The position numbers were made by a program, and so were the translations under genes. From Actinomycetes bacterium (GTDB lineage Bacteria; Actinomycetota; Thermoleophilia; Solirubrobacterales; Solirubrobacteraceae), in NCBI GenBank assembly GCA_021820105.1, contig JAKAED010000016.1, positions 1 through 40,212 on the forward strand: a stretch of DNA of 40,212 nt, read 5' to 3'. Positions within the stretch are counted from its first letter, which is position 1, and each line of letters starts with the position of its first letter. Positions 8,097 through 15,458 of the stretch are shown one piece after another. The notes beneath the pieces were generated by a model. That model was given only the letters and a program-made list of their open reading frames with translations, was not told the DNA's origin and did not search any database.

Positions 8097-9388
8097 CAGC
8101 TCGCCGCCTCCAGCGACTCAACTCGCGCGCCGGTCACCGGCCAGACGTCAAAGAAGTCGGGGAAGGTCTTGGCCACGACCGTCGGCTCCTCAAGCACCAC
8201 CGGGACGCGCGTGCCGATCACCGAAAACGCCATCGCGATGCGATGGTCCTCAAAGGTGGGAAGACGCACGTCCGTCAGCGGCACACCGGGATGTACGCGC
8301 AGGAAGTCAGACCCCTCCTCCACCTCGATGCCAAGGCGACGGAGGTTCTCGGCGCAGGCCGCGATCCGGTCGGACTCCTTCACGCGTGCGTGGCCGATGC
8401 CCTCGATCGTGGTCGGCCCGTCGGCAAACACAGCCGCGCAGGCGAGCGTCATGAACACGTCCGAACTGTTGCCCATGTTGACATGGACCCCTCTGAGTCG
8501 ATTGGGGCCGCTCAGCTCGAGCGCGTCACCATCACGAACCTCGCACCCCATCTGCGCCAGGAAGTCCGCGAGCTCAATGTCGCCCTGCGCGGTGCCGCGT
8601 CGGTCCAGCCCCAACAACCTGACGGTAGTGCCGGTGACAGCGGCGGCGGCCAGGAAGTAGGAGGCGGTGGACGCGTCCGGCTCAACGTTGAAGCGGCTCC
8701 CCCGATAGTGCCCGCGCTGCACGTGCAGGCCGTCAGCGCGCACGGATACGTCAACTCCGAAAGCACGCATCGCATCGACCGTGAGCCTCAGATAGGGGGC
8801 CGACACAAGCGCCCCAAAGGCGAGCGTCGTCTCCTGCCTCGCAAGCGGTGCCGCCATCAGCAGACCGGATAGGAACTGGCTGGAGACCGATGCGTCAACC
8901 GCCACCGTGCCGCCCGCCAACCCCGACGCGACCAGCGTCAGCGGGAAAGCCTCACCATCGATCTTCGCCCCCTGCGAACGCAGCGCAGCCAGCACCGGTC
9001 CCAGCGGCCGACGGCGCAGTTGCGGATGCGCATCCACCGCGAAGTGTCCCTCCCCGGCGGCCAGCAGCGGCAGCAGGAAGCGTCCCACGGTGCCGGCCAT
9101 CCCACAGTAGAGCTCAGCGTCGCCGCGGGGGGCTCCACCGATGCCGTGCACGACCCAGCGCTCAAGTCCGTCGACGTCCTGCAGCTCCTCCACGTGGGCC
9201 CCGAGTGCTCGCAGCGCCGTTGCCATCACCTCCGTGTCATCGGAGCGCAGCGGCCGCACGAGCGTCGACTCACCCACGGCCGCGCCGGCCAACAGCAGCG
9301 CGCGGTTGGTGATGCTCTTGGAGCCTGGCACTCGCACCTGCCAGTGGGCGGGCGGCTTGCCGGGGCTCACACGCGCGAGCCGGCTCAT
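8096..9388 (-). CDS. aroA: 3-phosphoshikimate 1-carboxyvinyltransferase (EPSP synthase)
   Basis: AroA joins phosphoenolpyruvate to shikimate-3-phosphate, the sixth step of the chorismate pathway. From ATG 9388 the protein has 430 residues. Family motifs are PGSKSITNRALLLA near the N-terminus, RRRPLGPVLAAL, SSQFLSGLLMAAPLA, EPDASTASYFLAAA, RVKESDRI and FEDHRIAMAFSVIG. The active-site loop reads YCGMAGTVGRFLLPLLA, where most Gram-negative enzymes have LGNAGTAMRPL; actinobacterial enzymes share this variation. The start is fixed by the ATGA overlap with the tyrA stop (9385-9388); an upstream in-frame GTG would add 14 unrelated residues. Confidence 0.96.
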   Translation of the reverse strand: MSRLARVSPGKPPAHWQVRVPGSKSITNRALLLAGAAVGESTLVRPLRSDDTEVMATALRALGAHVEELQDVDGLERWVVHGIGGAPRGDAELYCGMAGTVGRFLLPLLAAGEGHFAVDAHPQLRRRPLGPVLAALRSQGAKIDGEAFPLTLVASGLAGGTVAVDASVSSQFLSGLLMAAPLARQETTLAFGALVSAPYLRLTVDAMRAFGVDVSVRADGLHVQRGHYRGSRFNVEPDASTASYFLAAAAVTGTTVRLLGLDRRGTAQGDIELADFLAQMGCEVRDGDALELSGPNRLRGVHVNMGNSSDVFMTLACAAVFADGPTTIEGIGHARVKESDRIAACAENLRRLGIEVEEGSDFLRVHPGVPLTDVRLPTFEDHRIAMAFSVIGTRVPVVLEEPTVVAKTFPDFFDVWPVTGARVESLEAAS

Positions 9389-10203
9389 CGGCCGAGCCTC
9401 GCGCGGTCGGCCGCCGCCCGTTCGCACCACTGGCGCACCGCCTCAGAGTCACCTGAGTGCAGAAATCCGCTGAACTCCTCAAGCAGCTGGACGGCGTCGT
9501 CAATGGCCGCCGCCACCTCAGCGCGGTTATCGACAAAGATCGAACTCCACATCGCTGGATTCGAGCCCGCGACTCGAGTCGCGTCGCGGAAGCTGGGTCC
9601 CGAACTGCCATCGACCCCTGCGCGCAGAGCGTGCGCCACCAGCACATTTGCAAACACATGCGGCAGATGAGAGACGGTCGCCATCAGCCGATCGTGCAGC
9701 TCAGCGTCCAACTCGACAGGCTCGGCACCAAGGGCGGTGAGCAGATCGCGCACGCGCTGAGCACACCAGGCGGCGGTCTGCTCGGACGGGCACAGGTACC
9801 AGGTGCTGCCGGCGAACAGGTCGGCGCGTGCGTTTCTGACGCCGCTGCTCTCGGCACCGGCCAGCGGGTGGCCACCGATGAATCTGGGATCGCCGATCGA
9901 GTCGACGATGGTCTGCTTGGTGGAGCCGACGTCTGTGACCACGCAATCCTGCGGTGCGGCCGCCAGTACCTCCCTGACAAGCCGCGGCACGCTGTCCACC
10001 GGAGCCGCGACGAAGACCGCCTGCGCGGTGGCGACGGCGCCGGCAAGCGAGCCGGCGCCGGAGGAGATCGCACCGCGGTCGAGCGCCGTCCGGACCGCCA
10101 CCGGATCGGAGTCCCAGCCGCCCACCTCAGCCTGCAGCCGCTCCCGCGCTCCCAGCGCGATCGAGCCCCCGATCAGACCCAGACCGACGATCGCTACGCG
10201 CAC
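9385..10203 (-). CDS. tyrA: Prephenate (or arogenate) dehydrogenase
   Basis: TyrA oxidatively decarboxylates prephenate or arogenate toward tyrosine using NAD(P)+. The 272 residues start MRVAIVGLGLIGGS, a dinucleotide-binding GxGxxG. They contain the family stretches TDVGSTKQTIV and FIGGHPLAGAESSGV, and the conserved histidine segment MATVSHLPHVFAN. There is no fused chorismate mutase and no C-terminal ACT domain, so Tyr feedback through ACT is not expected; chorismate mutase is encoded separately by aroH. The start is GTG 10203, 6 bases after the aroF stop. Substrate and cofactor choice cannot be read from the sequence alone. Confidence 0.93.
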   Translation of the reverse strand: MRVAIVGLGLIGGSIALGARERLQAEVGGWDSDPVAVRTALDRGAISSGAGSLAGAVATAQAVFVAAPVDSVPRLVREVLAAAPQDCVVTDVGSTKQTIVDSIGDPRFIGGHPLAGAESSGVRNARADLFAGSTWYLCPSEQTAAWCAQRVRDLLTALGAEPVELDAELHDRLMATVSHLPHVFANVLVAHALRAGVDGSSGPSFRDATRVAGSNPAMWSSIFVDNRAEVAAAIDDAVQLLEEFSGFLHSGDSEAVRQWCERAAADRARLGR

Positions 10204-10209
10204 CGGAGC

Positions 10210-11391
10210 CTAACTGTGGTGTGCGCGACGCCGGCGAACCGCCGCCGCCAGTTCCTCGAGGACCTCAACCGTCGCATCCCAACCCATGCAGCCATCGGTG
10301 ATCGACTGGCCGTAGGTCAGCGACTCCAGCGGTCCGGGCGATTGGTTGCCCGCCACCAGGAAGGACTCGATCATCACGCCGGTGATCGTGCGGTCGCCTG
10401 CTGCCACCTGCTCACCAACGACACGCGCGACCTCAGGCTGACGTTCCGGGCGCTTACCGCTGTTGTCGTGGGAGAGGTCGATCACAACCCGCTCGGGCAG
10501 ATTCGACTCACGCAGCAGCGCATTGGCGCGAGCCACTGACTCAGCGTCATAGTTCGTGCCGGACTTACCGCCGCGCAGGATGATGTGGCAGTCGTGGTTG
10601 CCGCGCGTGTGCAGGATCGCCGAGCGGCCGTCCGCGTCGATGCCGGCAAATGCGTGCCGTGCCGCGGCGGCGCGGACGGCGTCGACCGCCACCTGCAGGT
10701 TGCCGTCGGTGCGGTTCTTGTAGCCGACTGGCATCGACAGGCCCGAGCCGAGCTGGCGGTGGATCTGGCTCTCCGTGGTACGGGCACCGATCGCGCCCCA
10801 GGAGACGAGGTCGGATATGTACTGCGGGGTGATGGGATCAAGGAACTCGCAGCCCACCGGCACGCCGAGTCCAAGCACCTCCAGCAGGAAGCGGCGCGCC
10901 ATCCGCAGGCCGGTGTTCACGTCGCCGGAGCCGTCAAGGTGCGGATCGTTGATCAGCCCCTTCCAGCCGATCGTCGTGCGCGGCTTCTCAAAGTAGACGC
11001 GCATCATCACGAGCAGATCCTGCCCAAGGCGCTTGGCCTCAACGCTGAGCCGCTCCGCGTACTCCCGCGCGGCGTTCACGTCGTGGACGCTGCAGGGACC
11101 CACCACGACCAGGAGGCGGTCATCTTCGCGGTCAAGGACAGCGTGAGCTTCAGCGCGGCCTCGCAGGAGCACGTCAACGCGCTCGCCGGTGAGCGGCAGC
11201 TCATCGAACAGCTCCTGTGGCGTGATCAGCGGAACAAGTCGCTCGATCCGCTGATCGCGGACGGCATCACCCTGGTTTGCACGGACCACGGTCATCACGC
11301 TCGGCACTTCCTCTGGCGGTTCATCGTTGAAATCCTCATCGGCTACATGGACTGTACGGAAACAGCCGCGAGGGGTTACGCCACGCGGCAT
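10210..11391 (-). CDS. aroF: 3-deoxy-7-phosphoheptulonate (DAHP) synthase, AroG/AroF/AroH type
   Basis: This enzyme makes DAHP from PEP and erythrose-4-phosphate and commits carbon to aromatic amino acids. It is a class I (E. coli-like) enzyme. Key stretches are DDRLLVVVGPCSVHD, YFEKPRTTIGWKGLINDP, RTTESQIHRQLGSGLS, KNRTDGNLQVAVDA and VIDLSHDNSGK. ATG 11391 gives 393 residues and has an excellent Shine-Dalgarno (GGAGGTGA, 7 bases upstream). An alternative ATG at 11295 (361 residues) has a weaker site (AGAGGAAG) but is where homology to E. coli AroG begins, so the first 32 residues may be an extension or untranslated. An aromatic leader peptide and an RNA stem lie upstream. tyrA, aroA and cmk follow directly. 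Confidence 0.94.
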   Translation of the reverse strand: MPRGVTPRGCFRTVHVADEDFNDEPPEEVPSVMTVVRANQGDAVRDQRIERLVPLITPQELFDELPLTGERVDVLLRGRAEAHAVLDREDDRLLVVVGPCSVHDVNAAREYAERLSVEAKRLGQDLLVMMRVYFEKPRTTIGWKGLINDPHLDGSGDVNTGLRMARRFLLEVLGLGVPVGCEFLDPITPQYISDLVSWGAIGARTTESQIHRQLGSGLSMPVGYKNRTDGNLQVAVDAVRAAAARHAFAGIDADGRSAILHTRGNHDCHIILRGGKSGTNYDAESVARANALLRESNLPERVVIDLSHDNSGKRPERQPEVARVVGEQVAAGDRTITGVMIESFLVAGNQSPGPLESLTYGQSITDGCMGWDATVEVLEELAAAVRRRRAHHS

Positions 11392-11398
11392 GGCGTGC

Positions 11399-11491
11399 TC
11401 ACCTCCGGCGCTCGGCTCCGCTTCAAACGCCCGCACGCCTGACGGACGAAAAGGGATGTGCCAGCCGAGCGCCTAGCTAAATCGCCAGGCG
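11399..11491 (-). promoter_or_regulatory. Predicted switchable RNA leader before aroF
   Basis: On the minus strand GGCGCTCGGCT (11463-11473) pairs perfectly with AGCCGAGCGCC (11407-11417), an 11-bp stem with a 45-base loop. The 5' arm starts at the last base of the leader-peptide TAG. The 3' arm directly touches the GGAGGTGA ribosome site (11399-11406) of aroF. A competing hairpin pairs CGCCT (11487-11491, over the last Ala-Trp codons) with AGGCG (11470-11474), sharing 4 bases with the 5' arm. A ribosome stalled at the Tyr/Trp codons would therefore change which stem forms. There is no U-tract, so translational control is as likely as transcription attenuation. The mechanism is inference. Confidence 0.6.
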
Positions 11492-11544
11492 TAGTAGCGC
11501 GCGTAGAAGGACCAGCCGATGGTGTTGGGGCGAGATCCGTTCAT
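11473..11544 (-). CDS. Putative aromatic leader peptide controlling DAHP synthase
   Basis: A 23-codon ORF from ATG 11544 to TAG 11473. Its last 13 residues are WSFYARYYAWRFS: two Trp, two Phe and three Tyr, the three end products of the pathway that the next gene begins. Leader peptides of this kind sense charged tRNA by ribosome stalling in trp, phe and his operons (established knowledge). No clear Shine-Dalgarno precedes the ATG. A possible -10 box TAGCCT (11561-11566) would give a 5' end only a few bases upstream, so translation may start near the mRNA end. The ORF is short and evidence is compositional plus positional; conservation was not tested. Confidence 0.72.
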   Translation of the reverse strand: MNGSRPNTIGWSFYARYYAWRFS

Positions 11545-11560
11545 ACGCGTCTGACGTGGA

Positions 11561-11566
11561 AGGCTA
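11561..11566 (-). promoter_or_regulatory. Candidate -10 box for the aroF leader transcript
   Basis: TAGCCT on the minus strand fits the actinobacterial TANNNT pattern. It lies 16 bases before the leader-peptide ATG, so a transcript would start about 9 bases upstream of it. No convincing -35 is visible. This is weak, motif-only evidence. Confidence 0.3.
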
Positions 11567-11613
11567 CCACCAGTGATGAGCAGCCGCAGAACGAAAGCCC
11601 GGAGCGCGTCGCC

Positions 11614-11643
11614 GGTCCGGGCCTCCAACCGGCGGCCCGGACC
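11614..11643 (-). terminator. GC-rich hairpin after the secreted Cys-repeat gene
   Basis: A perfect 10-bp inverted repeat (GGTCCGGGCC / GGCCCGGACC) with a 10-base loop lies about 38 bases beyond the stop of the secreted protein gene. It precedes the aroF leader on the same strand. There is no T-tract on either side, so it is a hairpin terminator candidate of the U-less kind often seen in high-GC genomes, or a structural element in the aroF upstream region. Confidence 0.45.
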
Positions 11644-11681
11644 ACAGAGGCGAGCGTCGGTGGCGAACGCGCCAGACGCTT

Positions 11682-13805
11682 TCAGATCCTGGCGTGCAGC
11701 GTTGAGCTGTTGCCGCCGGCCGCCCGCGCAACCACCGTCACCGACAACTTCGCATGCCGGCTCGACGCCAGCGCATGCCGACCATTGCCCGACAGCCTGA
11801 CCTTCACCTGCCCGGTGTGCCCCGCCCGGACCGAGTAATGCGCGGACGCGATCACAACCATCCGCCTACGACGCACCCGCCTGCCGTGAAGCTTGACCAC
11901 CACGAACTCAGCCGTCCGCAACTTCACGGTCCCATGACAGGGCCTCACCGAACAGCGCAACCCAACATCCAGGCGCCCACCGCGCACCAGCTTTGCCCCC
12001 AACACCCGCACGTGCGGCCTCACCACGTGCTCCGGCGAGACCGAGGTCATAGTCGTGGTCGTTGGTGTCGGCACCGCCGGAACCGTGATCGACAGAGACC
12101 GCGTCGCCGTCTGCACCGGCACCCCCGTACCCGTCACCTGCACCGTGAAGGACCCCGACGCAGCAGCCGTGGGCGTGCCCGAGATCACACCCGTCTGCGT
12201 ATCCAAACTCAAACCCGCCGGCAGCTTGCCCGACACCACAGACCACGAATACGAGCCCCAGGCACCCGACGCCACCAACGATGCCGAATACGAGGAACCA
12301 ACCACACCACCGCCCAAACTTGTCGTCGTCACCGCCAGCGGCGCCTGAATGTCGAGCACGTAAGGACCGTAACTGCCATTGCTGTTCTGGTATTGACCAA
12401 CCGCCACGCACGAACCCGCCGTCCCGCACCCGACACCCTCAAGCGAGGGCTGTGCCCCAGCCGCCAGGGAGTCAGCCGGCACCGGGGCCAGTAGCCCTGT
12501 GCCCGGGGTGCCGCCGCTGACCGGCACCAGCAGCGAGTCAGAGTTGAACGCTGTGCCCACGGAGAGGCAGAACCCGGCATCCGGGCAGGCAACGCTCGCG
12601 AGGAGGCTGCGTGGTGCGGAGGTCGGGTTTGCGGGCAGCGTCACGCCGGCGAGAACCGGCGTTGCAGCGGGCGCCACCGTGGCCACGGCCGCCAACGGCA
12701 GGTTCGCGTTGTTGGTGTACTGCCCCACCGCCTGGCAGGAGCTCGTGTCGCAGGCAACGTCGTGGAAGGAGCTCCAGCGCGATCCTCCCGAGGGCAGGGC
12801 GATCTCAGTCGCCGGCGCAGGCTGCCCACCGGTGATCTGGACGACGATCGGCCAGATCACGTTGACACCGGTCGCCCCCGAGTAGGCCTCGCCGGCCGCC
12901 ACGCACGGGCCGTCCGGCCGGCAGCCGACGGCGTCGAGTGTCGCCGCGCCGACATTGGTCGGCAACTTGACCTCAAGACCAGAGCCGACCGTGGCACCCG
13001 CGATGGGCACCACCAACGCCTGATAGTCGACGCCGCTGCTGTCAAGGTAAGACCCGACGGCCACACATGACGCGGCGGCTGAGCAGGCCACCTTCGTCAG
13101 GCTCGCGTCCTGGGTGTTTCCCCCTGAAGCAGGGAACGCGTTTGCGGGCTGTGTGGCACCGACACCCTGCCCGGCCACGCCGTTGATGATCGGTACCACC
13201 AACGGCTGGTTGCCTTCGGTGTTTGAGTAATAGCCGGCGGCGACGCAGTATCCCGCCACCGGACAGCTCACGCTGTACAGCTGCGAGCTCTGTGCACCCT
13301 GCGGCAGCTTCACCTCCTGACCTTGGCCCGGCACGCCATTCTGGATCGGCACGACCAGCGCGTGCACGGTCTTGGAGGCGTCCGTGTAGTGGCCCACGGC
13401 TACGCAGGCGCCGCCCGCCGTGCAACTGGCCTGCGTCAGGTCGACAGACCGCATGCTTGGCGCCGCGTCCTTGGGCAACGCGACGTTTGCAGCGGACCCT
13501 GGCAGGCCGTCTGTGATCGGCACGACCACGCCCTGCTCGGTCGTGGTCTGGTCAAAGTAGTGGCCGACGGATACGCAGTTGCCGGCTGACCAGCAGCTGG
13601 GCGCAGACAGCGCGAAGAATCTGGTTGAGTTCGCGCCCGCCGGCAGCCTTGCCGCCACCGCGCCTGTCACGAACTGCGGTGGCGCCTGGGCGCCTGCCCG
13701 CGGGGCACCCAATGTCATGCTGAGCGACAGAACCGCAAGCGCCAGGATCGCGCTCCGCGGCCTCCCCTGTCCGCCCAACCATCGATTGAGTTTCAAACCG
13801 ATCAC
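11682..13805 (-). CDS. Secreted Cys-repeat (propeller-like) protein with Ig-like domain
   Basis: Function unknown. The start is GTG 13805, with a strong Shine-Dalgarno (GGAAGGAG, 5 bases upstream); the upstream ATG at 13850 has none. The 707 residues begin with a signal peptide (basic start, hydrophobic 19-32, probable cleavage after AGAQA near 41). Eight repeats of about 50-60 residues follow (about 65-490). Each has a Cys pair, C-x5-C in seven and C-x4-C in one (Cys 71/77 to 460/466), usually followed by VAVGxY. A putative Ig (He_PIG-type) domain spans about 490-575, with PAGLSLDTQTGVISGTP. A basic C-terminal domain contains CSVRPCHGTVKL, a motif style common in secreted actinobacterial proteins. 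There is no catalytic motif, no sortase signal and no C-terminal anchor. It probably works outside the cell in binding or structure. Confidence 0.85.
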   Translation of the reverse strand: MIGLKLNRWLGGQGRPRSAILALAVLSLSMTLGAPRAGAQAPPQFVTGAVAARLPAGANSTRFFALSAPSCWSAGNCVSVGHYFDQTTTEQGVVVPITDGLPGSAANVALPKDAAPSMRSVDLTQASCTAGGACVAVGHYTDASKTVHALVVPIQNGVPGQGQEVKLPQGAQSSQLYSVSCPVAGYCVAAGYYSNTEGNQPLVVPIINGVAGQGVGATQPANAFPASGGNTQDASLTKVACSAAASCVAVGSYLDSSGVDYQALVVPIAGATVGSGLEVKLPTNVGAATLDAVGCRPDGPCVAAGEAYSGATGVNVIWPIVVQITGGQPAPATEIALPSGGSRWSSFHDVACDTSSCQAVGQYTNNANLPLAAVATVAPAATPVLAGVTLPANPTSAPRSLLASVACPDAGFCLSVGTAFNSDSLLVPVSGGTPGTGLLAPVPADSLAAGAQPSLEGVGCGTAGSCVAVGQYQNSNGSYGPYVLDIQAPLAVTTTSLGGGVVGSSYSASLVASGAWGSYSWSVVSGKLPAGLSLDTQTGVISGTPTAAASGSFTVQVTGTGVPVQTATRSLSITVPAVPTPTTTTMTSVSPEHVVRPHVRVLGAKLVRGGRLDVGLRCSVRPCHGTVKLRTAEFVVVKLHGRRVRRRRMVVIASAHYSVRAGHTGQVKVRLSGNGRHALASSRHAKLSVTVVARAAGGNSSTLHARI

Positions 13806-13993
13806 AGATGCTCCTTCCGGGGCCGTTTCACACAGAACGACCGTGAGCATGCAGCTAAGACCCCACCCCGCACATCGGGCAACCGCCCATCGTTAGCAGC
13901 CCTGAGCGCGTCTTAGGCTCCGGGCCGACGCCTTAGCGATGTCCCGCATCCGGCGATCCACCGGCAACTCAGGTTGCGCTGAGAGACGGTCCC

Positions 13994-15073
13994 TCAGCGG
14001 TCGCCGAGCGCTGACAGGAAACGGCTGTTCTCCGCCTCCGTGCCGAGCGTGACCCTGATAAAACCGGGGCCGCCCAGCGCACTTCCGGCCCTGACGAGCA
14101 CTCCGCGATCCTTCAGGGCGGCCACCACGGGCCCGTCCTGGTCGTCGTCCGCGACCCGTACCCAGAGGAAGTTCGCGTCACTCTGCGCCACCCAATAGCC
14201 CCGAGCCCGGAGTTCCTCGGTCACGCCGGTACGGGCAGCAACCGTCGCCACCACGCGGCGCTCGACCTCATCCTGGTACTTCACCGCCTCCACCGCCGCG
14301 GCCTGCGCTGCGCCGGTCAGATAGAACGGCTGGCGCACCTGGTCCACGGCCACGCGGAACGACTCGCTGCCGCACAGCCCGTACCCGACCCGCAGACCAG
14401 CAAGTCCGTACACCTTGGAGAACGTGCGCAGAATCACGAGGTTCGGGAAGCGCGCGAGCAGCGGCAGCGATGCCAGCGGATCCCCGACCGTAAGCGAGAA
14501 CTCAACGTAGGCCTCGTCCAGGATCACGCACACGTGCGGAGGCACCCGCTCGAGGAAGGCTTCGATCTGCTCCAGCGGGAGCGCCGTGCCAGTCGGATTG
14601 TTGGGGTTGCAGACCAACACAAGCCGGGTGGCGACCGTGATCTCAGCGAGCATCGCCTCCAGGTCAAGGCTCGCATCGGCCCTCAGCGGCACCTCGATCG
14701 CGCGGGCACCACTGGCGGCCGCCAGGTGCGGATAGATGCTGAACGAGGGCCAGGCATAGACCAACTCGGCACCTGGCTCGAGCAGCGCCTCGCCGGCGGA
14801 GAGCAGCAAATCGCAGGAGCCGGAACCGAGCGCGATCCTCTCCCACGGGATGCCGTAGCGCTCGGACAGCGCCCGACGCAGCTGCATGTAGGAGGGGTCG
14901 GGGTAGCGGTTGGCACCGAGTACAGCGTGTCGGGCCGCCTCCACCACGGGTTCCAGCGGGCCGAACACAGCCTCATTGGAGGCCAGCATCGCGACATCTG
15001 CACCCAGGTCATACCCGGCGGCCACAGGGTAGACGGGGATCCGACGGGTCTTCTCGGCGAACTCCAGGGACAT
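13994..15073 (-). CDS. hisC: HisC-family PLP aminotransferase (histidinol-phosphate or aromatic)
   Basis: A class I/II PLP aminotransferase of 359 residues. The PLP lysine is Lys220 in TFSKVYGLAGLRVGYG. NPNNPTGT (156-163) and DEAYVEF (186-192) are the family cofactor-binding signatures, and an Arg near the C-terminus (GFIRVTLGT) would bind the carboxylate. By sequence it is HisC-like. By position, between chorismate mutase and the DAHP synthase-TyrA-AroA genes, it may instead transaminate phenylpyruvate or hydroxyphenylpyruvate, a role some HisC-family enzymes have. It starts at ATG 15073, 16 bases after aroH. The symbol reflects the family, not a proven substrate. Confidence 0.85.
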   Translation of the reverse strand: MSLEFAEKTRRIPVYPVAAGYDLGADVAMLASNEAVFGPLEPVVEAARHAVLGANRYPDPSYMQLRRALSERYGIPWERIALGSGSCDLLLSAGEALLEPGAELVYAWPSFSIYPHLAAASGARAIEVPLRADASLDLEAMLAEITVATRLVLVCNPNNPTGTALPLEQIEAFLERVPPHVCVILDEAYVEFSLTVGDPLASLPLLARFPNLVILRTFSKVYGLAGLRVGYGLCGSESFRVAVDQVRQPFYLTGAAQAAAVEAVKYQDEVERRVVATVAARTGVTEELRARGYWVAQSDANFLWVRVADDDQDGPVVAALKDRGVLVRAGSALGGPGFIRVTLGTEAENSRFLSALGDR

Positions 15074-15089
15074 CAGAGCGAGGCTACCG

Positions 15090-15458
15090 CTACTGGGCAG
15101 AATCGAGGTCGGAGCGGAGCGCTCGGGCCTCTCTCAGGTAGACGTGGCGCGGGACATGGGACTCCTCCGCGTAGTAGTGCAGGAGCGTCCTGACCACGCG
15201 CGGCAGCGACCCGGGCACCGGGACCTCCCTGGTGCAGAGCAGTGGCACGCGACTCAGCCCGAGCTGCCGAGCAGCCACCGCGGGGAACTCGGCATCAAGG
15301 TCGTCCGTCAGCGTGAAGATGCAGCTGACCATGGTCTCCGGACTCAGCTCATTCCGTGCGATCAACTCGCGCATCAGCTCATCGGTCGCGGCTAGTATCG
15401 ACTCCGCGTCGTTGCGCTCCACGCTATTGGCGCCCCTGAGCGCAAACAACCGCTGCAT
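15090..15458 (-). CDS. aroH: Chorismate mutase, AroH (monofunctional) type
   Basis: AroH converts chorismate to prephenate, the branch toward Phe and Tyr. The 122 residues match the Bacillus AroH fold rather than the helical AroQ class. Family stretches are LRGANSVERNDAESIL at the N-terminus, FTLTDDLDAEFPAVAAR, VPLLCTREVPVPGSLPRVVR (active-site Cys, Glu and Arg region) and HVYLREARALRSDL at the end. It is free-standing. No Shine-Dalgarno is obvious before ATG 15458. It lies 16 bases before the aminotransferase gene and is divergent from the first glycosyltransferase gene across a 68-base gap. Confidence 0.94.
   Translation of the reverse strand: MQRLFALRGANSVERNDAESILAATDELMRELIARNELSPETMVSCIFTLTDDLDAEFPAVAARQLGLSRVPLLCTREVPVPGSLPRVVRTLLHYYAEESHVPRHVYLREARALRSDLDSAQ

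What the first reader, a model, noticed from the sequence alone, without database searches (positions are those of the whole stretch)
11399..11544. Aromatic leader peptide and switchable stem before DAHP synthase
Directly seen: a 23-codon ORF whose last 13 residues hold 2 Trp, 2 Phe and 3 Tyr; an 11-bp perfect stem starting at its stop codon; a competing 5-bp hairpin over the last Ala-Trp codons; and the 3' arm touching the GGAGGTGA site of aroF. Known: leader peptides rich in the regulated amino acid control trp, phe and his operons by ribosome stalling. Inference: this single leader senses all three aromatic end products and controls the first enzyme of the pathway. With no U-tract, it may act on ribosome access rather than on transcription.
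Basis: partly seen in the sequence, partly recalled or inferred. Interest (0 to 1): 0.78.

Follow-up and report, generated by a model that had tools for sequence, protein, structure and literature searches.

The report
Aromatic leader RNA before DAHP synthase
A short peptide gene rich in tyrosine, tryptophan and phenylalanine, followed by a conserved RNA hairpin, sits in front of the first enzyme of aromatic amino acid synthesis in most genomes of one bacterial order, and probably lets the cell make that enzyme only when aromatic amino acids run short.

Summary
In detail: a 23-codon ORF (11544-11473, minus strand) ending WSFYARYYAWRFS*, then an 11-bp perfect stem. Of 1130 six-frame stops in the window it alone has seven aromatic codons in the preceding 13. 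A covariance model finds it in 183 of 232 genomes of the window's order (E<=0.01); in a 396-genome phylum sample every match with E<=0.001 lies in that order. Corrected: aroF does not start beside the stem. In-frame stops in relatives put it at 11295, overlapping a 9-codon ORF. The 'competing hairpin' lacks covariation support. Instead the aromatic codon run pairs with the RNA just before the next start codon (0 of 200 partner swaps reach it; controls flat), recalling the actinobacterial LEU element; this pairing is not universal. The same leader precedes two DAHP synthase subfamilies. Best reading: a ribosome-mediated attenuator, probably acting on translation. Response, direction and the core's role are untested. 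Rfam has no match; nine paper searches showed no description.

The parts
11561..11569 (-). extended -10 promoter-like element of the leader (TGGTAGCCT), 16 nt before the leader ATG
   Evidence: Sequence; TGNTA within 45 nt upstream of the leader ATG in 49 of 67 leaders, mononucleotide-shuffle mean 4.7, maximum 11
11473..11544 (-). leader peptide ORF MNGSRPNTIGWSFYARYYAWRFS*
   Evidence: in-frame aromatic enrichment in relatives
11470..11484 (-). near-invariant core CGATTTAGCTAGGCG (codons Arg-Phe-Ser-stop plus the first bases of the stem)
   Evidence: Found by protein homology first: 27 of 29 aroF loci have it within 1.4 kb upstream, 26 of them exact. In 76 loci (many of them collected by this pattern with <=1 mismatch): CGA 76, TTT 76, TAG 75
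11463..11473 (-). 5' arm of conserved hairpin P2
   Evidence: covariation
11407..11417 (-). 3' arm of conserved hairpin P2
   Evidence: covariation
11483..11505 (-). predicted 5' strand of P1: codon run, ending in CUGGCG 11488-11483
   Evidence: Minimum-energy fold, 18 interrupted pairs with 11318-11296; longest uninterrupted helix 6 bp; P1 supported as a group feature
11296..11318 (-). predicted 3' strand of P1: end of the small ORF up to the aroF start, with CGCCAG 11318-11313
11351..11356 (-). second -10-like box TACAGT between the stem and the gene
   Evidence: TANNNT 18-52 nt before the start in 26 of 40 (shuffle mean 3.75) and 21 of 28 (shuffle mean 2.7) loci
11333..11337 (-). GAGGA, likely Shine-Dalgarno site of the small ORF
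   Evidence: sequence; GAGAGGA at the same place in L004-L009
11295..11324 (-). small ORF MNRQRKCRA*, its stop overlapping the aroF start (TGATG)
   Evidence: sequence; equivalent 9-10 codon ORFs read by eye in L003-L009
10210..11295 (-). aroF, DAHP synthase of the AroFGH type, start re-assigned to ATG 11295
   Evidence: PF00793 E 4.4e-84, TIGR00034 aroFGH; start
9385..10203 (-). tyrA, prephenate dehydrogenase
   Evidence: PF02153, PF20463
8096..9430 (-). aroA, EPSP synthase
   Evidence: PF00275
7467..8096 (-). cmk, cytidylate kinase
   Evidence: PF02224

Best explanation
A ribosome-mediated attenuator for the aromatic pathway. Shown by comparison: a short ORF whose last ten codons are rich in Tyr, Phe and Trp, a promoter-like box just upstream of it, a near-invariant core at its stop codon, a covarying hairpin P2, and a specific pairing P1 between the aromatic codon run and the RNA just upstream of the next start codon (in the window's clade, just inside the coupled small ORF). 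Inferred: when aromatic aminoacyl-tRNAs are plentiful the ribosome runs to the UAG and leaves; P1 re-forms around P2 and hides the initiation region, so DAHP synthase and the tyrA-aroA-cmk genes behind it are made poorly. When an aromatic aminoacyl-tRNA is short, the ribosome stalls on the run, the run cannot pair, and initiation is free. A second -10-like box after the hairpin in most loci would give an unregulated basal transcript. The job of the core is unknown.
For: Element in 183 of 232 genomes of the order at E<=0.01 (97 of 112 good-quality genomes, 47 of 54 genera), one match each except two genomes with a weak second one. Aromatic residues per 10 codons before the near-fixed Trp: 3.08 in frame versus 0.41 and 0.09 in the other frames, n=76; concentrated in codons -10 to -1, 0-5% at codons -20 to -13. 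Tyr is written TAC 99 and TAT 52 times, so the amino acid is kept. P2 on 65 preselected loci: 94.4% of cells paired, 53 double-change cells versus at most 9 when slid, covariation score reached by 0 of 500 shuffles; further G-C to A-U compensation in L259, L261 and L262, read by eye. P1: codon run against the 38 nt before the start, longest-helix score 18.39 versus 16.23 (sd 0.39) in partner swaps, 0 of 200, n=52; three control regions flat. Second group of 28 loci: 17.80 versus 16.72, 4 of 300. The Shine-Dalgarno purines themselves are paired, by different codons, in L150 and in L019, L010 and L015. In the window the minimum-energy and centroid folds join codon run and aroF initiation region by 18 and 17 interrupted pairs. 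Leader promoter motif in 49 of 67 versus 4.7 expected. U-tract after P2 in none of 73, which argues against an intrinsic terminator.
Against: P1 is not universal: 19 of 52 reach a helix score of 20 (swap mean 7.6, maximum 13). In the window its longest uninterrupted helix is 6 bp, the minimum-energy fold has a frequency of 0.0009, and the 261-nt fold is no better than shuffles (z -0.62). Predicted accessibility of the start region falls only slightly with the native leader: 0.40 versus 0.46 shuffled (p 0.019) and 0.44 with swapped leaders (p 0.066, not significant). The distance from P2 to the gene varies widely. The second -10-like box would give transcripts without the leader. The constancy of the core is not explained by this model. 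No expression data exist here.
Confidence: 0.6

Rival explanations
1. Transcription attenuation: P2, or Rho acting on the stretch behind the leader, ends transcription unless a stalled ribosome changes the fold; the second -10-like box then gives a basal transcript.
For: Classical for trp, phe and his leaders (recalled), and reported for C. glutamicum aroR in PMC11802643 (passages). The region from leader stop to RBS has C 0.40 versus G 0.31. A promoter-like box after the hairpin fits control of the upstream transcript only.
Against: U-tract after P2 in none of 73. No covarying alternative to P2 was found; the Ala-Trp hairpin has no double changes. P1 sits specifically at the start region, not in the 38 nt upstream of that nor in the start of the CDS.
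Confidence: 0.25
2. The core CGATTT[A/C]NNTAGGCG is the main regulatory site (for a protein, another RNA or the ribosome), and the aromatic peptide is a second input or an arrest peptide ending W-R-F-x-stop.
For: CGA TTT in 76 of 76 loci and CGA 19, TTT 18 of 19 further ones, synonymous positions included, although CGA is 8% of Arg and TTT 25% of Phe codons in seven neighbouring genes. No enriched pairing partner for the core downstream, in the P2 loop or upstream. Trp-Arg-Phe before the stop is also kept as a peptide in 72 of 76.
Against: Many of these loci were collected with the core as search pattern (<=1 mismatch), so part of the constancy is by construction; the homology-first figure is 27 of 29, 26 exact. 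No binding factor was looked for. The codon run varies between Tyr, Phe and Trp, which fits tRNA sensing. A 4-bp hairpin YUGG/CUAG presenting CGAUUU is possible but varies too little to be tested.
Confidence: 0.15
3. Chance ORF and chance stem without function.
For: Short ORFs and stems are common in GC-rich DNA (general knowledge).
Against: Order-wide conservation, frame-specific aromatic enrichment and covariation.
Confidence: 0.01

Closest known systems
aroR leader of Corynebacterium glutamicum aroF (Neshat et al. 2014, paper itself not seen; known here through passages of PMC11802643, PMC4046766 and PMC7356990)
   Same: Short leader peptide with Phe-Tyr-Phe in front of a DAHP synthase gene; ribosome stalling is reported to raise transcription under Phe limitation.
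   Different: PMC11802643 describes transcription attenuation blind to Tyr; PMC7356990 calls it translational control by Phe and Tyr. Here Tyr dominates, there is no U-tract, and a near-constant core is present. The covariance model finds nothing at E<=0.001 outside the order in a 396-genome phylum sample. The C. glutamicum sequence itself was not aligned.
LEU element of actinobacterial leuA (Seliverstov et al. 2005, PMC1262725; first of three parts of the text, the Leucine section and passages seen)
   Different: Leu codons and leuA; a conserved pseudoknot, for which I made no dedicated search here; P1 here changes register between lineages. That paper states that no conserved RNA structures were observed upstream of phenylalanine or tyrosine operons in its genomes.
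uORFC-13-1 motif, Acholeplasma aroF (PMC8632094, passages)
   Same: Candidate uORF upstream of aroF with at least one Phe codon.
   Different: An intrinsic terminator follows; found only in Acholeplasma and environmental sequences; sequences not compared here.
trp, phe and his operon leaders (classical attenuators; recalled)
   Same: Leader peptide rich in the regulated amino acid.
   Different: Terminator/antiterminator pair with U-tract; one amino acid rather than a mixed aromatic run.

Membership tests
Ribosome-mediated (leader-peptide) attenuator, broad sense | Short ORF rich in codons of the pathway's end products, just upstream of the biosynthetic gene | tested here: met
Ribosome-mediated (leader-peptide) attenuator, broad sense | Conserved RNA structure following or overlapping the ORF | tested here: met
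   P2 covariation, (65 loci preselected for a good arm)
Ribosome-mediated (leader-peptide) attenuator, broad sense | Alternative structures switched by ribosome position | tested here: inconclusive
   P1 uses the codon run and is statistically supported but not universal; accessibility effect small
Ribosome-mediated (leader-peptide) attenuator, broad sense | Expression responds to charged-tRNA level | not testable with these tools
   needs reporter or RNA-seq
Classical transcription attenuator (trpL type) | Intrinsic terminator with U-tract between leader and gene | tested here: not met
   0 of 73 P2 hairpins followed by >=5 T in 10 nt; no terminator-like site in window 11200-12000
LEU element | Codon run pairs with the Shine-Dalgarno region of the gene | tested here: met
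   as a group statistic; not in every locus, and in the window only as an interrupted helix
LEU element | Located upstream of leuA with Leu codons | tested here: not met
   upstream of DAHP synthase with aromatic codons
LEU element | Conserved pseudoknot | tested here: inconclusive
   no enriched partner for the core in the P2 loop; no pseudoknot prediction was run
Any Rfam 15 family | Covariance-model match | tested here: not met
   0 at gathering score in the whole window; at E<=5 four weak matches in 11200-11700, none overlapping 11404-11544
aroR of C. glutamicum | Sequence homology of the leader | not tested
   C. glutamicum sequence not fetched; only a phylum sample searched with the model

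The most novel reading that the evidence does not exclude
A previously undescribed order-wide regulatory RNA in which a near-constant core (possibly a small hairpin showing a CGAUUU loop) is read by an unidentified factor or by the terminating ribosome itself, while the aromatic codon run doubles as the antisense strand for the initiation region. The leader transcript might also pair in trans with the short mRNA that would start at the second promoter-like box, since that mRNA would carry the P1 3' strand near its 5' end.
Probability: 0.2. Interest if true: 0.78.

Novelty: new variant of a known kind. Interest (0 to 1): 0.6.

Why it matters
It looks like an RNA switch kept in most of a bacterial order while the enzyme behind it was exchanged: by motif, the first gene is a class I alpha DAHP synthase in 26 of 76 loci and a class I beta one in 50, six of these followed by an alpha gene; in one genome a tyrA-like ORF follows it instead. 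Regulation outlasting the regulated enzyme is rarely so clear. It extends the 'codon run hides the start site' idea of the LEU element to a mixed aromatic signal, and it poses a sharp question: what reads a core that hardly varies while the peptide around it varies freely.

Tried and rejected
Pairing partners for the core CGATTT downstream, in the P2 loop and upstream: none enriched; enrichment (z above 3) was seen only downstream, for words starting at -12 to -9, -4 and -2. aroF start at 11391: rejected by in-frame stops in L004-L009. Second model matches in G081 and G067: G067's is a reverse-strand match over the same place, G081's is weak (28 bits); neither was followed further. Element outside the order: seven phylum matches at E 0.04-0.1 only; the four genomes of other orders (five places, one mismatch each) in the class pattern search were not followed up. 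Genomes of the order in which the relatives searches gave no element (G031, G036, G040, G048, G052, G063, G089): no aromatic-rich short ORF in up to 900 nt before the DAHP synthase GPC motif, except one stretch with 4 aromatic residues at -756 in one of G031's two loci; G052's contig begins close by. The other genomes of the 49 without a match were not examined for this. Three leader peptides against NCBIfam and Pfam: no match. The accessibility change on simply cutting off the run (0.43 to 0.54) was not used, because cutting any 5' sequence raises accessibility; shuffled and swapped leaders are the fairer controls.

Rows dropped and biases: one search set aside 7 core-like chance hits without the Trp codon and collapsed 91 rows to 76 distinct loci. 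Most of these loci were found with the core pattern (<=1 mismatch), so the constancy of the core is partly by construction. The search for P2 arms was itself a search for pairing: 73 of 76 loci score >=7.5 (L025, L118 and L119 do not; L117's arm, with a 116-nt loop, is doubtful). The A1 alignment used 65 of 76: nine removed for weak arms or unusual loops (L018, L021, L025, L117, L118, L119, L142, L149, L173), and L006 and L147 left out as near-duplicates; the P2 percentages are therefore for loci chosen as having a good arm. P1 statistics use 52 loci with an MMIVMK-type start (40 of the 76 plus 12 of the 20 new loci) and 28 of 33 others (5 had no recognised RBS). Of the 20 loci fetched, L275 was judged a chance hit and left out. 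Swap tests do not remove shared ancestry; the flat control regions are the guard against it. Shuffles were mononucleotide.

Full report
What is in the window. On the minus strand, 11544-11473 encodes MNGSRPNTIGWSFYARYYAWRFS*. Among 1130 six-frame stops of the window with 13 open codons before them, it is the only one with seven or more aromatic codons there; seven neighbouring genes never exceed four in 13 residues. An 11-bp perfect stem joins 11473-11463 and 11417-11407. The genes behind are aroF (PF00793, TIGR00034), tyrA, aroA and cmk; an aminotransferase (hisC-like by recall; Pfam gives Aminotran_1_2) and a chorismate mutase lie upstream. Rfam has no match, and no terminator-like site was found in 11200-12000.

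Relatives. AroF matches occur in 45 of 101 close genomes, the window's own included. Of the 29 loci so obtained from other genomes (L003-L031), 27 carry the core block within 1.4 kb upstream, 26 of them exactly, with the same leader ending. The pattern CGATTTANNTAGGCG with up to one mismatch rings in 92 of 101 relatives, some of it chance since the reversed control also rings in some; exact matches are in 76 genomes by my count of the list. They include genomes without this aroF. Fetching those places showed the same leader in front of a different DAHP synthase, class I beta (PF18152, NF006421 and TIGR01361 for one or both of two examples). In 76 distinct loci the first gene, by motif, is I alpha in 26 and I beta in 50, six of the latter followed by an I alpha gene. 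In one genome (G062) the DAHP synthase is on another contig and a diverged element (33 bits) precedes a tyrA-like ORF.

Leader peptide. In 76 loci the ten codons before the near-fixed Trp hold 3.08 aromatic residues in frame, 0.41 and 0.09 in the other frames; Tyr is written TAC 99 and TAT 52 times. The enrichment is concentrated in codons -10 to -1; at codons -20 to -13 it is 0-5%. In the 11 codons before that Trp, Tyr is present in 75 of 76 loci, Phe in 38, Trp in 33 and all three in 13; in 19 further loci 17, 13, 11 and 7. An extended -10 (TGNTA) lies within 45 nt upstream in 49 of 67 leaders with a suitable ATG, against 4.7 by shuffling, usually about 7-19 nt before the ATG, so the 5' leaders are probably very short (inference). 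In the window the box is 11569-11561.

Core. The codons CGA TTT are the same in 76 of 76; TAG in 75 and TGG in 72. In 19 further loci CGA 19, TTT 18, TAG 18. Most of these were collected with the core itself, so part of the constancy is by construction; the homology-first count above is the fair one. CGA is 8% of Arg and TTT 25% of Phe codons in seven neighbouring genes, so selection on the RNA, not only on the peptide, is likely. No pairing partner was found. Columns 9-12 and 21-24 of A1 could form a 4-bp hairpin with a loop holding CGAUUU; two loci with CAG in place of UAG (L003, L263) keep that pairing and the few loci without the Trp codon break it, but the strands vary too little to test it (and reading).

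Hairpin P2. On 65 aligned loci 94.4% of cells pair, six pairs show double changes, 53 cells are doubly changed against at most 9 in slid controls, and 0 of 500 shuffles reach the covariation score. Loci were preselected for a good arm (see Tried and rejected). Later-fetched loci show a further compensation, G-C to A-U at the fourth pair in L259, L261 and L262, while L257 and L258 have a mismatch there (read by eye).

Distribution. A covariance model finds the element at E<=0.01 in 183 of 232 genomes of the order, 97 of 112 good-quality ones and 47 of 54 genera; 49 have no match. In a 396-genome phylum sample all 12 matches with E<=0.001 lie in the order; seven others have E 0.04-0.1. Both runs used stricter filters that can lose weak matches. 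The top named AroF relatives (best 80 of 590 kept) are Actinomycetota at about 60-65% identity; that the order may be Solirubrobacterales is recall, not a result.

Start of aroF. The window frame is open upstream of 11391, but L004-L009 have in-frame stops between that place and a conserved MTV start, which is ATG 11295 in the window; L003 has no in-frame start near 11391. The aroF ATG overlaps the stop of a 9-codon ORF (11324-11295) with GAGGA before it; equivalents are read by eye in L003-L009.

P1. Words from the codon run are enriched for complements downstream, and duplex energies are better than with swapped partners (-21.5 versus -19.8, sd of means 0.3, n=73). Limited to the 38 nt before the start, duplex energy beats 200 of 200 swaps in 40 loci, and the longest-helix score is 18.39 against 16.23 in swaps (0 of 200, n=52), while the earlier leader part, the region further upstream and the start of the CDS are flat. 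Examples: L145 CUACGCCUGG/CCAGGCGUAG; L157 CGCUACGCCUGG/CCAGGCGUAGUG beside L265 AUCACGCCUGG/CCAGGCGUGAU, where a Tyr codon has become His and the partner has followed; L173 GCCUAUUUGCG/CGCAGAUAGGC, where Trp has become Leu. A second group of 28 loci, mostly I alpha, gives 17.80 against 16.72 (4 of 300). L150 and L019, L010 and L015 pair the Shine-Dalgarno purines directly, with different codons. In the window the longest uninterrupted helix is CUGGCG/CGCCAG; the minimum-energy fold extends it with interruptions to 18 pairs between 11505-11483 and 11318-11296, up to the aroF start, but that fold has frequency 0.0009 and the region folds no better than shuffles (z -0.62). Modelled accessibility of the start region over 40 loci is 0.40 with the native leader, 0.46 shuffled (p 0.019) and 0.44 swapped (p 0.066). 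P1 is thus well supported as a group feature and weak as an explanation for every member.

Second promoter-like box. TANNNT lies 18-52 nt before the start in 26 of 40 loci (shuffle mean 3.75) and 21 of 28 (2.7); in the window it is TACAGT 11356-11351. If real, transcripts from it lack the attenuator and would give basal expression.

Mechanism. Most likely the codon run hides the initiation region through P1 unless a stalled ribosome occupies it. A U-tract follows P2 in none of 73 loci, so intrinsic termination is unlikely; Rho cannot be excluded (C 0.40, G 0.31 between leader stop and RBS). Sensing by stalling, its direction and the role of the core are inference.

Known systems. C. glutamicum aroR has a Phe-Tyr-Phe leader before aroF, described as transcription attenuation responding to Phe and not Tyr (PMC11802643, passages; PMC4046766, passages) and elsewhere as translational control by Phe and Tyr (PMC7356990, passages). 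The LEU element pairs a Leu codon run with the leuA Shine-Dalgarno box (PMC1262725, first part, Leucine section and passages); the same paper reports no conserved structures upstream of phenylalanine or tyrosine operons in its genomes. A uORF candidate before Acholeplasma aroF has an intrinsic terminator (PMC8632094, passages). Searches combining leader peptide with DAHP synthase, attenuation, Solirubrobacterales, Thermoleophilia, uORF and related terms showed no description of this element in the listings; the library holds only open-licence papers, and most listed papers were not opened.

Noticed in passing
window 11682-13850, minus strand: A 722-aa ORF with a putative Ig domain (PF05345) lies between the hisC-like gene and the leader. 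In several relatives the DNA just before the leader reads like the end of the hisC-like protein (xNxRFLxAL; printout, by eye), so this gene looks inserted in the window lineage.
   Followed up: partly
window 13994-15458, minus strand: An aminotransferase (hisC-like) and a class I chorismate mutase (PF07736) precede the leader operon, making a larger aromatic gene cluster.
   Followed up: partly
L012, L014, L018, L019, L028, L136: Loci with a I beta and then a I alpha DAHP synthase behind one leader look like intermediates of an enzyme swap under a conserved regulator.
   Followed up: partly
window 11324-11295 and L003-L009: A 9-10 codon ORF (MNRQRKCRA in the window) overlaps the aroF start in the window's close relatives, which suggests translational coupling.
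   Followed up: partly
L157 and L264-L272 (genus g15): P2 carries what looks like a one-base insertion in its 5' arm in this genus (GGCGCTTCGG or GGCGCTCCGG), which made simple patterns miss it.
   Followed up: no
A1 columns 9-12 with 21-24: A possible 4-bp hairpin YUGG/CUAG presenting CGAUUU; the codon before the stop nearly always ends in C (73 of 76), as this pairing would need.
   Followed up: partly
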